A stretch of 64,000 bases of DNA from Streptomyces aquilus (lineage in GTDB: Bacteria > Actinomycetota > Actinomycetes > Streptomycetales > Streptomycetaceae). The number at the start of each line of letters is the position of its first letter. Positions within the stretch are counted from its first letter, which is position 1. The stretch lies in NCBI RefSeq assembly GCF_003955715.1, contig NZ_CP034463.1, positions 3,410,001 to 3,474,000 on the forward strand. The letters run 5' to 3'. A program made the position numbers and the translations under genes. Below the pieces are notes generated by a model. It was given only the letters and a program-made list of their open reading frames with translations, did no database searches and was not told the DNA's origin. Below, in pieces: positions 53,747 through 62,898 of this stretch.

Positions 53747-53917
53747 CCCTCCCGACCCTCCTTCACAGGTGGGGCACAAGTTCTTACCGATTTCTCAGTG
53801 GTTGAACAGTGTCACCGCAGCCCTCGTATGTATGAGCGGCCCGTGCTCCCCCGCGCGGGCCACCCAAAGACGACGGACCCGGCCGTCCCCACCGGGTCCG
53901 CCCCATACGGAGGTTCC

Positions 53918-55480
53918 ATGGCCGAGAACGTCACCTCGCTGTTCCGCAGCTCCGCGGCACACAGCCCGTCCATGGCGGCGCTGACGCGGGCGGCAGGAGA
54001 CGGGGCCGGCCCGATCGACTTCTGTATCCCGGTGAACCCCTACTTCCCCACCCCGGGGATGTGGGACGAGATGGCAGGCCGACTGCGCGACATCATCACG
54101 TACTACCCGTCCAGCGCCGACACCATCACCGCCGAGCTGTGCAACCTCCTCCAACTCCCGCCGCAGGCCGTGGCGATGGGCAACGGCTCGACCGAACTAA
54201 TCACGTGGATCGACCACTTGCTGGTCCGTGAGTCCCTCGCCGTCCCCGTCCCCACCTTCGGCCGCTGGACCGACCAGCCCATGGAGACCGGCAAGCGGGT
54301 CGACATGTTCCCGCTCCAGGAGTCCAGCGGCTTCGCCCTCGACCTCGCCCAGTACGCCGAGTTCATACGGGCCCGCGGCACCCGGGCCGCCGTGATCTGC
54401 AACCCCAACAACCCCGACGGCGGCTTCCTCCACAAGCACGCGATCGTGCAGTTCATGGACGCGATGGCCGACCTCGACCTGGTCGTCATCGACGAGAGCT
54501 TCCTGGAGTTCGCCGACGCGGAGGCGGAGCCGAGCGTGGTCCAGGAGGCCATGCTGCGCCCCAACGTCATCGTGCTCCGCTCGCTCGGCAAGAACTTCGG
54601 GCTGCACGGCATCCGCTTCGGCTACATGGTCGCCAACCCGGCGCTCGCGGGCCGCGTCCGCTCGATGCTGCCGAAGTGGAACCTCAACGCCTTCGCCGAG
54701 TACGTGGTGTTCATGCTCAAGGAGCACGGCGCCGAGTACGCGCAGAGCCTCCAGCAGGTCCGCCGGGACCGCCTCGACATGTCGAGCCAGCTCTCCGCCC
54801 TCCCCGGTCTGACCGTCTACCCCTCCCAGGGCAACTTCCTCTTCGTACGCCTCCCCGTGGGCGCCGAAGGCACCGTGGTCCGGGACCGGCTGCTCTCCGA
54901 GCACCGGATCCTGGTCCGCGAGTGCGGTAACAAGATCGGCTCGTCCAGCCGCTTCCTGCGTCTCGTGGTGCGCCCCCAGACGGACGTGCGTCGCCTGGTG
55001 TCCGCGCTGGAACAGGTGCTCTACGGGACCAGGAGGGGAGCCGCCGTGCCCGAGCTGTCCACCGGGACCAGTTACAGCTCGGGCACGGCGGCCGTGGACC
55101 GCCTGATGAGCAACGGGGTGGGTATGCCGCTGGCCGCACAGGCCATGGCGGCGGCGCCGATGCCCGCGGCGCCGGCGCCTGTGCCGGTGCCGGCGGCGCC
55201 TCAGCCGGTCGCCGCACAGCCGATGGCCCCGCAGCCGGTGGCTCCTCAGCCGATGCCCATGCCGACGCCGGTCGCCCCGCAGCCGATGCCGATGCCGGTC
55301 GCTCCTGCGGCCGCCGCCCAGTCGCCGTACGGGGTGCCTGCCGCCGGTCCCACGCCGCCCGGGGTGCCCGCACGGGGTGGGCTGACGGCGGCGCAGGTCC
55401 GGGGCACCAACGGGTTGACGCCGGCGCCGGCGCAGGGCTGGCCGAACAGTGGCGCTTGGCCCAATGCGGCGGGGGCGTGA
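53918..55480 (+). CDS. PLP aminotransferase (class I/II) with Pro/Ala/Met-rich C-terminal tail
   Basis: 520 residues. The first 390 form a fold-type I aminotransferase with NPNNPDGG (cofactor loop), DESFLEFAD and the PLP lysine K225 in SLGKNFGLHGIRFGY, nearest to histidinol-phosphate aminotransferases. A tail of about 120 residues follows, rich in PQPMA/PMPMP repeats, with no fold I can recognise. Such tails are unusual for aminotransferases and may tether the enzyme. ACGGAGG precedes ATG 53918; the frame opens 40 codons earlier. It stands alone, and substrate and pathway are unclear. Confidence 0.85.
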   Translation: MAENVTSLFRSSAAHSPSMAALTRAAGDGAGPIDFCIPVNPYFPTPGMWDEMAGRLRDIITYYPSSADTITAELCNLLQLPPQAVAMGNGSTELITWIDHLLVRESLAVPVPTFGRWTDQPMETGKRVDMFPLQESSGFALDLAQYAEFIRARGTRAAVICNPNNPDGGFLHKHAIVQFMDAMADLDLVVIDESFLEFADAEAEPSVVQEAMLRPNVIVLRSLGKNFGLHGIRFGYMVANPALAGRVRSMLPKWNLNAFAEYVVFMLKEHGAEYAQSLQQVRRDRLDMSSQLSALPGLTVYPSQGNFLFVRLPVGAEGTVVRDRLLSEHRILVRECGNKIGSSSRFLRLVVRPQTDVRRLVSALEQVLYGTRRGAAVPELSTGTSYSSGTAAVDRLMSNGVGMPLAAQAMAAAPMPAAPAPVPVPAAPQPVAAQPMAPQPVAPQPMPMPTPVAPQPMPMPVAPAAAAQSPYGVPAAGPTPPGVPARGGLTAAQVRGTNGLTPAPAQGWPNSGAWPNAAGA

Positions 55481-56102: not shown

Positions 56103-59100
56103 TCAGCACCGCAGGCGGTCGCCGAAGGCTTCCGCGCCCACGATGACGGCCTTTCTCGGCCCGGAGTTCCAGAGGTCGATGCGCAGGTCGGTCATGTCGT
56201 GCAGGGGGCGCAGGTCGAGGCTTCCCCCTCCGACCAGCTCCAGGCCCAGTCGCCTGAGCTGCGGGAAGAGAGCCCTGAGCGGTGCGATGTCGGTGTACTG
56301 CTCCAGACCGGTAAGCATCAGCCGCTCGATGTGCGGGAGCGGATCCAGCGACCTCAGGGTCGAGATCGAGTCGACAGCCAGCGCGATCCGAGTGAGCCGC
56401 GGCGCGTGAGCGGAGGCTGCCAGGGTCCAGGCGGGGCTGTGGGAGAACCCCTCGACTGTCAGCGACCGCAGATTCGACCATTCCTCCAGGAAGTCGAGCC
56501 GTCGCAGATGTTCGGCCCCGATCTCCAAGTGGTGCACGTCCGGCTGTGGTTCGAGGGCCACGGTGGTCCCGCCCCCGATCAGCTGGAGCTCGGTGAGGTC
56601 AAGGTCGCGCAGCACGGACAGGTCCGAAAGGGCTGAGCAATCCTGTAGTGCGACTCTGCGCAGTTCCTCTCGGCTGCGGAGAAACGCGAGATCTTTGACG
56701 GCCCCATTGCCGCAGAGCGTGAGTGATGCAAGGTGCTGTACGGGAAGGTGTGCGTCAAGCTGCCTCGCGGTGTACGAGCCCCGCACGGTGAGCCTGGCGA
56801 CGGAACCGAGCCGGGGCAGTCGTACGAGCGCCGCTTCCTTGTCGACGATCAGGTCGAACAGGTCGGCCCCTTCGAGGACTTCCGCGGTGTACTCCTCCAG
56901 CGGCTGGAGGTCCCAGACCCCCGCCACTTCGCTGCGGACGAGCCGGTCCGGATGGAACGCGCACTGTCTCAGCTTGCGCCGTGACTTCGGGCTGCGCACC
57001 CGGCCGAGGAGTCGCACCGTGTTCAGGGCCACACGCTCTCTCAGCTCATCCCCGTCCGGCAGCACTCCGACGACCCAGTCCCCCAGGCCCGCGAGCTCCT
57101 CGACCTCCCCGCCGTCCCGTGGCGGCATGAGGGCATCCACCCGGCCCTTCACCGCCTCCATCAGGGACTGGTTCAAGGTCTGGACGTTGATCGCACACCG
57201 CGCCGCCAGGAGGTGGAGCTGGTACTTCTCCTGTCTGTTCGGGGCGGCATCCCCGAGATCCACGAGGGCGGTGATGAGCTTGAAGGCATCCGGCCGTGAC
57301 ATGTGGCCGACAGCCAGCACGATCACGTCCTGCCAAGCCTCGTTGCGGACCTGCTCCAGGAGTTCCAGGAAGTAGCCGCTCTCATGAAACTCCTTGGCCG
57401 CCAGGAAGTCCTGGAATGTGCGGTGGATGAACTGGAACGCGTCGTCGGTCCGTTCCTGGAGCAGTCCGCTGCGGTCCAGCAGGAAGCGCAGCACCCGCTC
57501 GGGTGGCCCCTGTTCCCCGACCTGAGGCATGTCCCGCACGGCGAGAGCCAGTTGCTGGACGGCCTGGTCGTAGGTCATCTGCTGCTGTCCCGTACGCACC
57601 AGCCAGATGGCCAACCGCTGAAGCAGGGCGTGCTGTTCGTCGGAGTCCAGCCGGATGGGGTCGGCGTGCAGGACGCCCCGCCCCGCGTCCCGTCCGCCCA
57701 GGAGCATGGCGAGTGCGGCCCTGTAGAGCTGCCAGCGGGTGGTGGGCAGCAGGCCTCGACGGCGCCGGTGCAGGGCGCAGATCACGGCTGCCAACAGCGG
57801 CGTGCGGGCGAGGTCGCGCAGCGCGGTGTTCCGCTCCAACTGGTGGGCGAGGTCCTGTTCCAGGGAGGTGAGGAGTTCGTCCTCCGTCCGGCCACATTCG
57901 GTGCGTGCGGCGTTGTGCCAGGCCTCCACGAAGGCGTGAATGTCGGCGTCGCTCATCGGCAGGAGGGTCAGCTCGGCGAAGCCGTCCCCTTCTAGCCAGT
58001 TCTTGTCGACCGCGTTGGGGCGCACGGTTGCCAGGCAGCGTGTGCCGGGATAGCGGTCGAGGAGTGCGGCGAGCGAGCGCCGCGCCCCTTCTCGCTCCGC
58101 TGCCGGAACCTCGTCCAAGCCGTCCACCAGGAGCAGCCCGCGACGGGCCTCCAGCACACGGTGCACCCAGCCTTCCGGCTCCCCGTCCGTGAGGGTCCGT
58201 CCAGCGGCCAGGAGCTCCGACGGCTTGGGAAAGCGTCCGCCGCGGGCATGCACCTCGCGCAGGGGGACCACGAAGGGGATGAGGCCGTTCAGATCGGTGA
58301 GATCCGCGTCCAGACTGCCGACCGCGGCATGGGCGGCGAGCCACCAGACGAGGGTCGTCTTGCCGGCACCCGCCTCGCCGCGGAGCAGGGCGCGAGGCCG
58401 GTCCGCCAGCAGTGCCTCCACACGCTGAGGATTGCCCCAGAGCGGGCGCGGCCGTCTCGGTATGCCGGCAGCGTACGAGGACGAGCGCGCGGGAGCCTCC
58501 GCCCGCAGGCTCAGATAGGCCGTGTCCAGGTCCCACCGGGACTCTCTCCGCCCCAGTTCCTCGATGCCGAAGATCTCCGTCTTGCGGTACTGGGATCTCA
58601 GGTCCTTCGCGTACCGGTCCTCGAAGCGCTCGTCCTCGGGGTGCACCTCGGTGATCTGTTCCTGCCAGGTACCGCGGAGCTTCAGCGAGCCAAGGTCGAC
58701 GAGGGCCGAAATCGGTACTCCCTCGATCCTGAGATGCCGGCGCGCCTGGGGCACCTGGGTCACTATGCCGAGCAGTACGGGGCCCGCGAAGATCGGGGCA
58801 CCGGACAGCCCGGCGAGGGGAGACATCGTCACGTCCTCTGGTTCGTCCGCGGCCGGCTGGTCGAGTTCGCAGGTGAGGGCGCCCTTGATCCGTCCGGCCA
58901 TCGGCAGCACGGTGGCCCGGTACTGGTCGTACTCCAGATCCTCGCCATGCTCCCCGTAGCGCTGATTCCATGGAAACCCGACGATCTCGCAGAGCGGCAG
59001 TGCGGCCCCGGTGGCGACCCTGCCGTGTCTAAGACGGCCCATGGGCGCCGCCCGCTGGGCGCTGATCACGTCCGTCGTCGCGATCAACACCACGGCATCG

Positions 59101-59294
59101 ATCTTCTTGCCCGCCCAGTGGACGTCGCACAACACGGGCCGGCTGGACGAAGGATGGATCACCTCGATCCGCTTGCCGTCCCCCACCACATGCCACGCCG
59201 TGAGCACCCGCCGCCGGTCCAGCAGCACCCCGCTGCCCTGCCCCCGCTCGCCCCGTACCACGACGACCCGGTCCAGGGCCCGCCCCCCGATCAC
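56103..59294 (-). CDS. Trypsin-like protease / NACHT NTPase / leucine-rich-repeat-like STAND protein
   Basis: 1063 residues in three parts. Residues 1-200 form a chymotrypsin-fold protease with all three catalytic residues: His35 (TAWHVV), Asp66 (KIDAVVL) and Ser164 (GLSGAP). Residues 285-720 form a NACHT ATPase: Walker A GEAGAGKTT (306-314), Walker B LLLVDGLDE (387-395) with the NACHT-typical paired acidics, then helical domains. Residues 840-1050 contain leucine-spaced strands (LASLTLCGNG, LRSLTVEG, IERLMLTGLEQYTDIAPLRAL) that look like irregular LRRs, a sensor region. This architecture belongs to the STAND class linked to phage defence and programmed death. GTG 59294 overlaps the Trypco2 stop (GTGA), so both are produced together. 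Confidence 0.9.
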   Translation of the reverse strand: MIGGRALDRVVVVRGERGQGSGVLLDRRRVLTAWHVVGDGKRIEVIHPSSSRPVLCDVHWAGKKIDAVVLIATTDVISAQRAAPMGRLRHGRVATGAALPLCEIVGFPWNQRYGEHGEDLEYDQYRATVLPMAGRIKGALTCELDQPAADEPEDVTMSPLAGLSGAPIFAGPVLLGIVTQVPQARRHLRIEGVPISALVDLGSLKLRGTWQEQITEVHPEDERFEDRYAKDLRSQYRKTEIFGIEELGRRESRWDLDTAYLSLRAEAPARSSSYAAGIPRRPRPLWGNPQRVEALLADRPRALLRGEAGAGKTTLVWWLAAHAAVGSLDADLTDLNGLIPFVVPLREVHARGGRFPKPSELLAAGRTLTDGEPEGWVHRVLEARRGLLLVDGLDEVPAAEREGARRSLAALLDRYPGTRCLATVRPNAVDKNWLEGDGFAELTLLPMSDADIHAFVEAWHNAARTECGRTEDELLTSLEQDLAHQLERNTALRDLARTPLLAAVICALHRRRRGLLPTTRWQLYRAALAMLLGGRDAGRGVLHADPIRLDSDEQHALLQRLAIWLVRTGQQQMTYDQAVQQLALAVRDMPQVGEQGPPERVLRFLLDRSGLLQERTDDAFQFIHRTFQDFLAAKEFHESGYFLELLEQVRNEAWQDVIVLAVGHMSRPDAFKLITALVDLGDAAPNRQEKYQLHLLAARCAINVQTLNQSLMEAVKGRVDALMPPRDGGEVEELAGLGDWVVGVLPDGDELRERVALNTVRLLGRVRSPKSRRKLRQCAFHPDRLVRSEVAGVWDLQPLEEYTAEVLEGADLFDLIVDKEAALVRLPRLGSVARLTVRGSYTARQLDAHLPVQHLASLTLCGNGAVKDLAFLRSREELRRVALQDCSALSDLSVLRDLDLTELQLIGGGTTVALEPQPDVHHLEIGAEHLRRLDFLEEWSNLRSLTVEGFSHSPAWTLAASAHAPRLTRIALAVDSISTLRSLDPLPHIERLMLTGLEQYTDIAPLRALFPQLRRLGLELVGGGSLDLRPLHDMTDLRIDLWNSGPRKAVIVGAEAFGDRLRC

Positions 59295-59629
59295 CGCTCG
59301 TCATCACCTCGCCCGAACCGGCCGACGCTCCCCCGGTTCTCGTTCCGCACCTTCCACGGTTGCCCGGTCCGGGCGTCGAGGGCCTTCAGCGTGACGGTCA
59401 CCCGATGCGTACGGGTCGTGTCGCCGCCCCCGTCGACCCCGCCCTCGACGACCCACGCCTTCACCTTGACCCCGCCCTTGACCTCTTTGCGCAGCTCAAC
59501 CCCGAACTCCAGCTCGATGTCCCCCACTTCGAAGGTCACGTCCTGGCCGGAGGAACGGCTCGCCGCGGTGATGAGTTCGTCTCGCACGGCCTGCACGGCG
59601 TCGGCCAGCTCGATCCGGTTGTCGCTCAT
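59291..59629 (-). CDS. Trypco2-like (trypsin-co-occurring) domain protein
   Basis: 112 residues, small and soluble. The first half ELADAVQAVRDELITAASRSSGQDVTFEVGDIELEF and the following strand pair match what I recall of Trypco2, a domain repeatedly found beside trypsin-like proteases in predicted conflict systems. It precedes and overlaps the protease-NACHT gene by 4 nt. It may be the substrate, adaptor or inhibitor of the protease; none of these is shown. TAGCTT ends 6 nt before the ATG, so the operon is possibly leaderless. Confidence 0.78.
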   Translation of the reverse strand: MSDNRIELADAVQAVRDELITAASRSSGQDVTFEVGDIELEFGVELRKEVKGGVKVKAWVVEGGVDGGGDTTRTHRVTVTLKALDARTGQPWKVRNENRGSVGRFGRGDDER

Positions 59630-59792
59630 GCGGCCAAGCTAGCGGCTGCTCGCCGCCACCACGGGCGGCATGCGGAAGACCCGGCCCCCTGAAGGGTCGC
59701 GTCCGGATCCTGTCTCGCAAGGAACTTGACGGTCTCTCACTTTGCCGAACTGACAGCCCATCAACAGCAAGCACTCCTACGGTGCCGTGTTC

Positions 59793-60560
59793 ATGACAGA
59801 CACTTCGGAAGCAACCCCCACCCCGGTCGGGCGCCGTACCGTTCTGATCGCAACCGGCGCCACGGCAGCGGCAGTTGCCGTGGGCACCACAGTGCCCGAA
59901 GCCCCCACAGCCGACGCGGCCGACGCCTCCCCCGTCGCCGCCGCGGCCGTCTGCACCCTCACGAAGGAGATGACCGAAGGCCCCTACTACCTGGACGGCG
60001 CGCTCGTCCGCTCCGACATCCGCGAGACGAAGACCGGCTTCGTGCTGAAGCTGGCGCTGACCGTCGTCAACGACGACACCTGCGCGCCGATCCCCAACGC
60101 CCTCGTGGAGATCTGGCACGCCGACGTGCTCGGCGAGTACTCCGGCTACGTCGGCAACAACGGCCACAACGAGGCCGACAACGGCACGTTCCTGCGGGGC
60201 GGCGTCCTCACCGACGCCGGCGGCGTCGCCACCATCACCACGGTGTACCCGGGTTGGTACCGGGGCCGCTGCGTCCACATCCACGTCAAGGTCCACACCG
60301 GCGTGACCCTCACCTCGGACGGCTCCTTCACCGGCGGCACCGAAGTCCACACCGGCCAGCTGTTCTTCGACGAGGCGATCACCGCGCGAGTGGGCGCGCT
60401 GTCCCCGTACTCGGCGAACACGGTCACGCGGACGACCCTGGCCCAGGACTCGATCTACGACGACGGGGGCGCGGCGTCGGGGTTGCTGACCCTGAAGGCC
60501 ATCGGCAGCTCCCCGTCGTCGGGGTACACCGGGACGCTGACGCTGGGCGTCGAGGTCTGA
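59793..60560 (+). CDS. Secreted intradiol ring-cleavage dioxygenase
   Basis: 255 residues. The N-terminus has GRRTVLIATGATAAAVAVG, a twin-arginine-type signal. The catalytic domain has the intradiol iron site: Tyr in EGPYYLDG and Tyr-His-His in WYRGRCVHIHV. It should cleave catechol-type aromatics between the hydroxyls, here outside the cell, perhaps on lignin- or humus-derived phenols. ATG 59793 was preferred to a GTG two codons earlier. It diverges from the Trypco2 gene and is followed by a terminator. Confidence 0.88.
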   Translation: MTDTSEATPTPVGRRTVLIATGATAAAVAVGTTVPEAPTADAADASPVAAAAVCTLTKEMTEGPYYLDGALVRSDIRETKTGFVLKLALTVVNDDTCAPIPNALVEIWHADVLGEYSGYVGNNGHNEADNGTFLRGGVLTDAGGVATITTVYPGWYRGRCVHIHVKVHTGVTLTSDGSFTGGTEVHTGQLFFDEAITARVGALSPYSANTVTRTTLAQDSIYDDGGAASGLLTLKAIGSSPSSGYTGTLTLGVEV

Positions 60561-62064: not shown

Positions 62065-62721
62065 TCACTTCTCCGGGCACTCCTTCCACGCCAGGTGGTA
62101 CACCGTGCTGATGTCGCCGTCCGTCGAGTCCATCGTCATGAAGCTGACCTTGTTCGCGGACGTCGACCCCGCCGCGACCCTCAGCTCCGTGTTGATGTTG
62201 AAGTTGCGCTGGACTCCGCAGGGTGCCCAGACCAGTTGGGCCCAGTCGGTCGTGTCGGTGGCCTGCCAGTTGTCGTTGTAGGGGCCGTTGAAGGGGTGGG
62301 AGCGGGACGCGGTGTTCGGGGAGCCCTGGAAGTAGTACGAGGCTCTCTGGGTGCCGGTCGCGCCGGACTGGAGGGCGGCGAAGCCTCGGTAGTCCGCGCT
62401 GGCGATGGCGTACGTGAAGCCCTGAGGGACGTGGACGATGAGGTTCAGCTGGCAGTTCCTGCGGAACGCCGTCGGGTCCGAGCCGCCGCCCGCCTGGGCG
62501 AGGTAGTCGCTGTACGTCACCGTGAAGGCCGTGTTGTCCTCGGAGACGGCCACCGCCGTCGTCCCGGCGGGGCAGCCGCTGCCGTTCACCGTCGCCACCT
62601 TGATGACGATCTTGTCCGGCGGCGGGTCCTCGAACCCGCCGGACGAGGTGGCGGCCTGGGCCGGTAGTGCCGTGGTGAGCAGAGCGGCTACCGCACCGCT
62701 CAGCAGGAGCCCACGAGTCAT
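62065..62721 (-). CDS. Secreted DUF4360 protein
   Basis: 218 residues with a Sec signal (cleavage near PAQAA, residue 24). The mature protein matches DUF4360: GSGCPAGTTAVAVSEDNTAFTVTYSDY near the start, then RRNCQLNLIVHVPQGFTYAIASADYRGFA. Four cysteines probably form two disulfides. The family is a secreted beta-rich protein of unknown role in streptomycetes and fungi. GGAGAG precedes ATG 62721. Confidence 0.85.
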   Translation of the reverse strand: MTRGLLLSGAVAALLTTALPAQAATSSGGFEDPPPDKIVIKVATVNGSGCPAGTTAVAVSEDNTAFTVTYSDYLAQAGGGSDPTAFRRNCQLNLIVHVPQGFTYAIASADYRGFAALQSGATGTQRASYYFQGSPNTASRSHPFNGPYNDNWQATDTTDWAQLVWAPCGVQRNFNINTELRVAAGSTSANKVSFMTMDSTDGDISTVYHLAWKECPEK

Positions 62722-62898
62722 GGTCTCTCCGTAACAGTTGGGGGGTGGCTGACGTGCCACCCGGACCGTAGGGACAGACCGGCGCCGCGGACAGGACGAA
62801 CTCAAGCCATTCACAGGTGCGGTTTTCACAGCATCTTCACAGTGTCCGACCTCTGCCGATACGTGAGGACGGCGGCCCACAGCGCGGCCTCAGAACAC

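What the first reader, a model, noticed from the sequence alone, without database searches (positions are those of the whole stretch)
56103..59629. Trypco2 plus trypsin-NACHT-repeat operon: candidate immune or regulated-death system
Seen: a 112-residue Trypco2-like protein whose stop overlaps the start of a 1063-residue protein with an intact His35/Asp66/Ser164 protease triad, a NACHT Walker A and B pair, and a leucine-repeat-like C-terminus. Known: NACHT STAND proteins act in anti-phage defence, and trypsin-co-occurring domains were described in predicted NTP-dependent conflict systems. Inferred: the repeat end senses a ligand, NACHT oligomerises, and the protease cuts a target, with Trypco2 as candidate substrate, adaptor or inhibitor.
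Basis: partly seen in the sequence, partly recalled or inferred. Interest (0 to 1): 0.8.

Follow-up and report, generated by a model that had tools for sequence, protein, structure and literature searches.

The report
Bacterial NLR receptor with built-in protease
A soil bacterium carries a two-gene unit: an immune-receptor-like protein, shaped like human NLR inflammasome sensors but with a protease at its front end, and a small partner protein that accompanies this protease; it is probably an untested infection- or stress-triggered protease switch.

Summary
On the minus strand of a 10.4-Mb Streptomyces chromosome a 112-aa Trypco2 protein (Pfam E 4e-27) overlaps by 4 nt a 1063-aa protein: HtrA-like protease, NACHT, HEAT-like helices, LRR. 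His35/Asp66/Ser164 are kept in all 81 aligned relatives that have the N-terminus. The AlphaFold2 model (pLDDT 85) matches NLRC4/NLRP3/NOD2 over 217-1063 and Deg-type proteases over 1-206. So the architecture reading holds. Immunity is inferred: no phenotype, no defence genes recognised beside it, no phage copy. Against a mobile defence gene: fixed chromosomal sites (57 of 80 relatives abut clpC; this clade has a second site). For a conflict role: divergent LRRs, patchy presence, weak likeness to anti-phage proteases (LmuA). New points: Trypco2 follows the protease, not NACHT (near clpC, 11 of 11 protease-NLRs have it, 0 of 20 NNH1-NLRs); NLR-linked Trypco2s carry a conserved W..FG tail (72 of 74 loci) that is rare in other Trypco2s (4 of 55); 9 of 80 loci pair this NLR in tandem with an NNH1-NLR. 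Verdict: new variant of a known kind (bacterial NLR with protease effector plus Trypco2). Ligand, substrate and Trypco2's role are unknown.

The parts
59291..59629 (-). Trypco2 gene, 112 aa
   Evidence: ORF; PF19631 E 4.3e-27
59384..59614 (-). Trypco2 core domain, residues 6-82
   Evidence: PF19631 match 6-82; AF2 model of this protein is poor, pLDDT 54
59294..59383 (-). Trypco2 C-terminal tail, residues 83-112, with W92, V94, N96, F105-G106
   Evidence: W92 50, F105 51, G106 50 of 53 rows of A2; FG in 72 of 74 NLR-linked loci, 4 of 55 Trypco2s of other contexts
59291..59294 (-). 4-nt overlap GTGA of Trypco2 stop and large-gene start
56103..59294 (-). protease-NACHT-HEAT-LRR gene, 1063 aa
58680..59294 (-). 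HtrA-like protease domain, residues 1-205
   Evidence: fold; PADLOC LmuA E 3e-6 over residues 10-203
59190..59192 (-). catalytic His35 codon
   Evidence: 81 of 82 aligned relatives, one lacks the region
59097..59099 (-). catalytic Asp66 codon
   Evidence: 82 of 82
58803..58805 (-). catalytic Ser164 codon, in GLSGAP
   Evidence: 82 of 82
58425..58679 (-). linker / pre-NACHT segment, residues 206-290, partly disordered in the model (271-285)
57375..58424 (-). NACHT module incl. helical and winged-helix parts, residues 291-640 (Pfam NACHT 303-462); limits are mine from alignment and model
58356..58379 (-). Walker A GEAGAGKT, residues 306-313
   Evidence: G306, K312, T313 in 82 of 82
58110..58139 (-). 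Walker B stretch, residues 386-395 (D391, E395)
   Evidence: 82 of 82
56805..57374 (-). HEAT-like helical region, residues 641-830
   Evidence: model secondary structure
56106..56804 (-). leucine-rich repeats, residues 831-1063

Best explanation
A bacterial NLR whose N-terminal effector is a Deg/HtrA-like serine protease, encoded with its dedicated partner Trypco2. Resting state: ADP-bound, LRR folded back, protease latent (inferred from NLR homology). A ligand reaches the LRR/HEAT end; NACHT exchanges nucleotide and oligomerises, which clusters and orders the protease domains (inferred). The residue before Ser164 is Leu163, not the Asp that locks classic trypsin zymogens, so activation by allosteric ordering, as in HtrA, is more likely than by N-terminal cutting (sequence shown; mechanism inferred). 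Trypco2 works with the protease through its core domain (shown by co-occurrence), and in this NLR subtype through a conserved C-terminal W..FG tail as well (tail shown, role inferred); I take it as adaptor or substrate presenter. Outcome: cutting of a cellular or phage protein that stops the infected or damaged hyphal compartment (inferred).
For: NLR fold over 217-1063 and Deg-type protease fold over 1-206. Triad, Walker motifs and WHD His invariant. Trypco2 directly upstream in 71 of 80 relatives. Near clpC protease-NLRs have Trypco2 in 11 of 11, NNH1-NLRs in 0 of 20 (one further genome has two NNH1-NLRs plus an orphan Trypco2). In 61 Streptomyces genomes 52 of 70 Trypco2s have a trypsin domain directly downstream and 9 more have one on the other strand beside them, fused to NACHT, nSTAND5, TPR and others. 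Tail: 72 of 74 against 4 of 55. LRR least conserved: mean pairwise identity 0.33 against 0.68 for the NACHT NBD. Protease resembles LmuA, E 3e-6.
Against: No phenotype data. Fixed chromosomal sites rather than a defence island; no PADLOC match in five neighbours. dN/dS is below 1 in every domain, HEAT (0.32-0.65) is as high as LRR (0.36-0.58), and in the closest pair the protease (0.45) exceeds the LRR (0.36): no sign of positive selection. Some protease-NLRs have no Trypco2 beside them. The mirror-tree test did not single out the protease as Trypco2's partner (r 0.80 protease, 0.82 NACHT). 9 of 70 Trypco2s had no trypsin domain found nearby. The complex could not be modelled.
Confidence: 0.45

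Rival explanations
1. Trypco2 is the substrate: the activated protease cuts its tail or core and the freed piece is the effector or signal, by analogy with nuclease-protease pairs in which the upstream gene encodes the pro-effector.
For: Same gene order (small upstream gene, protease fused to a STAND NTPase) as in Hachiman/AVAST/Lamassu pairs (PMC12799240, passages); conserved tail of about 29 residues with fixed aromatic positions.
Against: The Trypco2 core matched only PF19631 and no enzyme family in Pfam and no solved structure credibly (best E 0.59); the core is shared by partners of many different proteins while the tail is not, and an effector would be expected to be a recognisable toxin.
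Confidence: 0.25
2. Trypco2 is an inhibitor (antitoxin-like) that holds the protease silent until NACHT assembly displaces it.
For: Tight translational coupling (4-nt overlap) and almost constant pairing.
Against: Triad intact in 10 of 10 examined genes without Trypco2 directly upstream; but 3 of these 10 (L051, L056, L066) have Trypco2 elsewhere in the locus, and other genomic copies may act in trans.
Confidence: 0.12
3. Not immunity: a physiological or developmental proteolytic switch of Streptomyces (stress, proteostasis, programmed death of hyphae).
For: Fixed chromosomal sites, 57 of 80 within 500 bp of and convergent with clpC; family names seen in the listing are Streptomyces; phage records have none; a CARD-NLR-like system is known to control lysis for gene transfer agents (PMC13236601, passages).
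Against: Patchy presence: by my count of the listed rows 46 of 246 Streptomyces genomes have a match that begins in the protease domain (list cut off), 27 of 59 genomes have no such NLR near clpC, 5 of these 27 on short contigs; divergent LRR; a core developmental gene should be more constant.
Confidence: 0.25

Closest known systems
Bacterial NLRs / bNACHT proteins (bona fide NACHT-LRR NLRs and NLR-related proteins)
   Same: Tripartite effector-NACHT-sensor design; bacterial NACHT-LRR proteins are already called bona fide bacterial NLRs (PMC12169576, introduction read)
   Different: Effector here is a protease and comes with Trypco2; the tested bNACHT25/32 carry PD-(D/E)XK nucleases and NCH1 (PMC12169576, passages). 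Assignment to a bNACHT clade was not possible: the 2023 classification paper is not held
Trypco-trypsin pairs of VMAP ternary systems (Kaur et al. 2020, PMC7159879; passages and part of section 9)
   Same: Trypco2 gene next to a trypsin-like peptidase at the N-terminus of a large protein
   Different: No VMAP-C in the large protein and no MoxR or vWA match in eight neighbouring ORFs; NACHT-LRR takes that place
Nuclease-protease pairs in AVAST, Hachiman, Lamassu, DRT (PMC12799240, passages)
   Same: Trypsin-like protease fused to a sensing NTPase, small partner gene upstream; LmuA-model similarity of the protease
   Different: Upstream gene is Trypco2, not an MBL-fold nuclease
CARD-NLR systems, LypABC (PMC13236601, passages)
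   Same: Protease plus NLR-like ATPase logic; protease serine needed for lysis there
   Different: Protease and NLR are one protein here, with no CARD-sized segment before the protease; no gasdermin or LypC-like protein was looked for genome-wide
Animal inflammasome NLRs (NLRC4, NLRP3, NOD2)
   Same: Fold over residues 217-1063
   Different: CARD/PYD is replaced by the protease itself; similarity is of fold, 14-21% identity

Membership tests
Bacterial NLR (NACHT-LRR) | NACHT module | tested here: met
   PF05729 E 3e-23, cut-off 26.7, 82.9 bits
Bacterial NLR (NACHT-LRR) | C-terminal leucine-rich repeats | tested here: met
   PDB LRR chains E 1.1e-6, NLR fold; Pfam LRR models only below cut-off
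Bacterial NLR (NACHT-LRR) | N-terminal effector domain | tested here: met
   Deg-type protease fold with triad; activity itself not tested
Bacterial NLR (NACHT-LRR) | anti-phage activity | not testable with these tools
   needs plating assays
Trypco2-trypsin module | Trypco2 family protein | tested here: met
   94.6 bits, cut-off 24.2
Trypco2-trypsin module | adjacent trypsin-like peptidase | tested here: met
   4-nt overlap; 71 of 80 relatives have Trypco2 directly upstream
VMAP ternary system | VMAP-C domain on the peptidase protein | tested here: not met
   not among Pfam hits up to E 1; in 52 Trypco2-linked proteins of other genomes it occurs in 1 (first 880 aa only)
VMAP ternary system | MoxR ATPase and vWA neighbours | tested here: not met
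   Pfam on eight neighbouring ORFs between 51391 and 62880: none
Nuclease-protease pair (AVAST/Hachiman/Lamassu type) | MBL-fold nuclease gene upstream | tested here: not met
   upstream gene is Trypco2; next gene beyond is an intradiol dioxygenase-like ORF on the other strand
CARD-NLR system | CARD-like domain before a separate protease | tested here: not met
   protease fold begins at residue 1-4
Mobile defence island | known defence genes beside it | tested here: not met
   no PADLOC match up to E 0.001 in five neighbours

The most novel reading that the evidence does not exclude
Trypco2 is a two-ended adaptor: its core docks on the protease in all Trypco systems, and its subtype tail (W-x-V-x-N ... 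F-G) docks on the NACHT-LRR body, so that it licenses protease firing only in the assembled ring. The family began as a tandem NLR pair beside clpC (NNH1-NLR plus Trypco2/protease-NLR), a bacterial counterpart of paired sensor/executor NLRs, later split by loss and relocation; the window's locus would be the relocated executor, with the NNH1-NLR partner still at clpC in the same genome.
Probability: 0.25. Interest if true: 0.75.

Novelty: new variant of a known kind. Interest (0 to 1): 0.5.

Why it matters
In animals the NLR recruits its protease through adaptor domains; here sensor, switch and protease are one chain, with a small partner of unknown role. If it cuts on activation it would give Trypco2, named in 2020 without a tested function in the papers I saw, its first mechanism, and would put a protease-wielding NLR into the chromosomal gene content of antibiotic-producing bacteria. 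The clpC site with NNH1-NLR, protease-NLR, both or neither is a ready natural experiment.

Tried and rejected
Repeated effector swapping on one NACHT-LRR body: rejected. In a tree of 107 NACHT regions the 74 protease-type and the 32 NNH1-type rows are each one side of a branch (support 100 and 85), so the combinations were fixed once and the clpC site reflects gain and loss of two old paralogues. The single HTH-type row is a long branch of unsure place.

Mirror-tree for Trypco2 against domains of the large protein, 74 loci: r 0.80 protease, 0.80 linker, 0.82 NACHT NBD, 0.80 HD-WHD, 0.76 HEAT, 0.61 LRR; not discriminating, partial correlations failed.

Trypco2 structure: AF2 pLDDT 54, pTM 0.41; no fold search was made with it. 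No credible solved relative.

Promoter/terminator scan of 59560-59860: none found, which says little for Streptomyces.

First counts that were artefacts and were replaced: Trypco2 upstream 54 of 80 (over-long ORF starts) became 71 of 80; trypsin next to Trypco2 43 of 70 by motif became 52 of 70 by profile. A first scan of genome contigs with the single protein gave no relative; the alignment gave 80.

Literature: 'Trypco2' is in 2 held papers; trypsin + NACHT + anti-phage + Streptomyces in 0; NNH1 + NACHT in 1, an unrelated soil paper; searches listed no paper that, from title and abstract, is about this operon. Not in print in what I searched; subscription journals and preprints are mostly not held, and the 2023 bNACHT paper could not be read.
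Full report
What is there. Two minus-strand genes: Trypco2, 59291-59629 (112 aa), and 56103-59294 (1063 aa), overlapping by 4 nt. Pfam: Trypco2 E 4.3e-27; NACHT E 3e-23; weak Trypsin_2 and LRR hits below cut-off. PADLOC: LmuA E 3e-6 over residues 10-203, nothing for Trypco2. The window lies at 3410001-3474000 of a single 10,393,987-bp contig; close relatives are named Streptomyces.

Conservation. Asp66 and Ser164 in 82 of 82 aligned rows, His35 in 81 of 82 (one lacks the N-terminus), Walker and WHD residues in 82 of 82. Mean pairwise identity falls from 0.68 (NACHT NBD) and 0.55 (protease) to 0.41 (HEAT) and 0.33 (LRR). dN/dS against six relatives: NACHT 0.12-0.23, protease 0.35-0.49, HEAT 0.32-0.65, LRR 0.36-0.58. 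This fits a changeable sensor end, but all values are below 1 and in the closest pair the protease (0.45) is above the LRR (0.36), so it is no proof of an arms race. Residue 163, before the catalytic Ser, is Leu and is invariant in 82 rows; that this speaks against trypsin-type zymogen activation is my inference from known protease chemistry.

Trypco2 belongs to the protease. Of 80 relatives in named Streptomyces genomes, 71 have Trypco2 directly upstream of the matched gene. Of the other nine, L051 and L056 have it before a second tandem copy, L066 has it downstream, L099 is cut by its contig end, and L031, L049, L075, L087, L090 have none found. In 61 Streptomyces genomes, 44 have Trypco2. 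I fetched 70 of the 76 listed matches (the 5 own ones and 1 below cut-off were dropped): 52 have a trypsin domain directly downstream on the same strand, 9 have one on the other strand beside them (8 of these 9 weak, 18-31 bits), 9 none found. Of the 52 downstream proteins (first 880 aa) 49 match Trypsin_2, 25 NACHT, 19 nSTAND5, 16 AAA_16, 9 TPR_12, 1 VMAP-C, 1 NB-ARC. The sharpest contrast is the clpC neighbourhood in 59 genomes: 11 hold the protease-NLR, all 11 with Trypco2; 20 hold only NNH1-NACHT-LRR proteins, 0 of 20 with Trypco2; one (G011) has two NNH1-NLRs and an orphan Trypco2; 27 have no such NLR, 5 of these on short contigs and one (G005) with weak Trypco2 pieces. Fisher p 1e-8, ignoring relatedness.

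A subtype tail. After the core, NLR-linked Trypco2s carry about 29 residues with W, V, N, and F-G; FG is in 72 of 74 loci, in 62 of them at the same spacing. In the 61-genome sample it is in 13 of 15 NLR-linked and 4 of 55 other Trypco2s; of these four, L226 and L206 have the full NLR-type tail, L226 being the orphan at clpC and L206 having a protease-NLR match just upstream. The 74 loci were found by similarity to this family, so shared descent explains part of it; the fixed aromatic positions still suggest constraint.

Where it sits. In 57 of 80 relatives the gene is convergent with clpC within 500 bp (median 93 bp; clpC is within the fetched flank in 60). The window's own clade (23 rows, support 99) sits elsewhere: 14 of its loci with long flanks have no clpC in the flank, and 12 of 21 loci without clpC (own included) share the DUF4360 neighbour (62065-62880) and 12 of 21 the aminotransferase (53798-55480) (Pfam names). 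Comparing coordinates, of 12 genomes with that aminotransferase 4 have the protease-NLR within about 0.6 to 12 kb (G000, G009, G011, G007) and 8 show none there among the listed rows. So the gene is accessory at fixed chromosomal sites. It has no match in phages; among 87 plasmid records with a match, one place covers 80% or more of the query. In 246 Streptomyces genomes 170 match at E<=1e-50, but many only through the NACHT-LRR body; by my count of the listed rows, 46 have a match that begins in the protease domain, two of them with a stop inside (G094, G225) (list cut off).

Tandem NLRs. In 9 of 80 loci (L048, L049, L064, L069, L075, L086, L087, L103, L106) an NNH1-NACHT-LRR gene lies directly upstream; L053 has one downstream. 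Six of these nine have Trypco2 in between; L049, L075, L087 do not. In the window's genome the clpC site holds an NNH1-NACHT-LRR gene (NNH1 E 1.5e-49), 60 bp from clpC. The two NACHT types are separate clades.

How it most likely works. Shown: domains, triad, NLR fold, Trypco2-protease association, tail, sites. Inferred: ligand binding at the LRR/HEAT end, nucleotide-driven oligomerisation, ordering of protease domains, Trypco2 as adaptor, cutting of a target, and arrest or death of the compartment. Precedents: trypsin-like proteases fused to defence NTPases that activate an upstream-encoded nuclease (PMC12799240, passages) and LypA, whose serine is needed for lysis (PMC13236601, passages). 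Kaur et al. named Trypco1/2 as frequent neighbours of trypsin-like peptidases of VMAP systems (PMC7159879, passages and part of section 9). Another paper calls Trypco2 an adaptor domain without testing it (PMC10907252, passages).

Novelty. NACHT-LRR proteins are known bacterial NLRs (PMC12169576, introduction) and Trypco2-trypsin neighbours are known; their union in one NLR, the subtype tail, the clpC site and the tandem with NNH1-NLRs I did not find described in the searches named under Tried and rejected. New variant of a known kind.

Noticed in passing
L024 752-7336 (own genome C1:3378751-3385335): A second Trypco2 followed by a 2071-aa trypsin / nSTAND5 / TPR protein; its protease weakly matches Avs1b, E 0.0005. 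About 81 kb from the window's operon.
   Followed up: partly
L025 6596-9556 (own genome C1:5802595-5805555): Trypco2 followed by an 854-aa trypsin / weak NB-ARC-like NTPase / TPR protein.
   Followed up: partly
L026 7125-12000 (own genome C1:21 kb) and mirror copy near C1:10.37 Mb: Near both chromosome ends: Trypco1 plus a 1318-aa trypsin-NACHT-HEAT protein, facing a short Trypco2 ORF; beside that an ORF I read as transposase-like (not Pfam-tested). The protease weakly matches RT-Protease models, E 3e-5.
   Followed up: partly
L029 5097-8144 (own genome C1:5973096-5976143): NNH1-NACHT-LRR paralogue, convergent with clpC at 60 bp.
   Followed up: yes
L028 6460-9363 (own genome C1:96459-99362): A third NACHT-LRR protein of this type with an HTH (HTH_31) N-terminus, 967 aa.
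   Followed up: no
L256 (G011) and L272 (G005), next to clpC: Orphan Trypco2 without protease-NLR (G011) and weak Trypco2 pieces without any NLR (G005): looks like loss of the system.
   Followed up: no
L051, L056: Tandem duplicates of the protease-NLR with a single Trypco2 between them.
   Followed up: no
G000:C1: 15 NACHT matches in the own genome, 13 over the curated cut-off.
   Followed up: no
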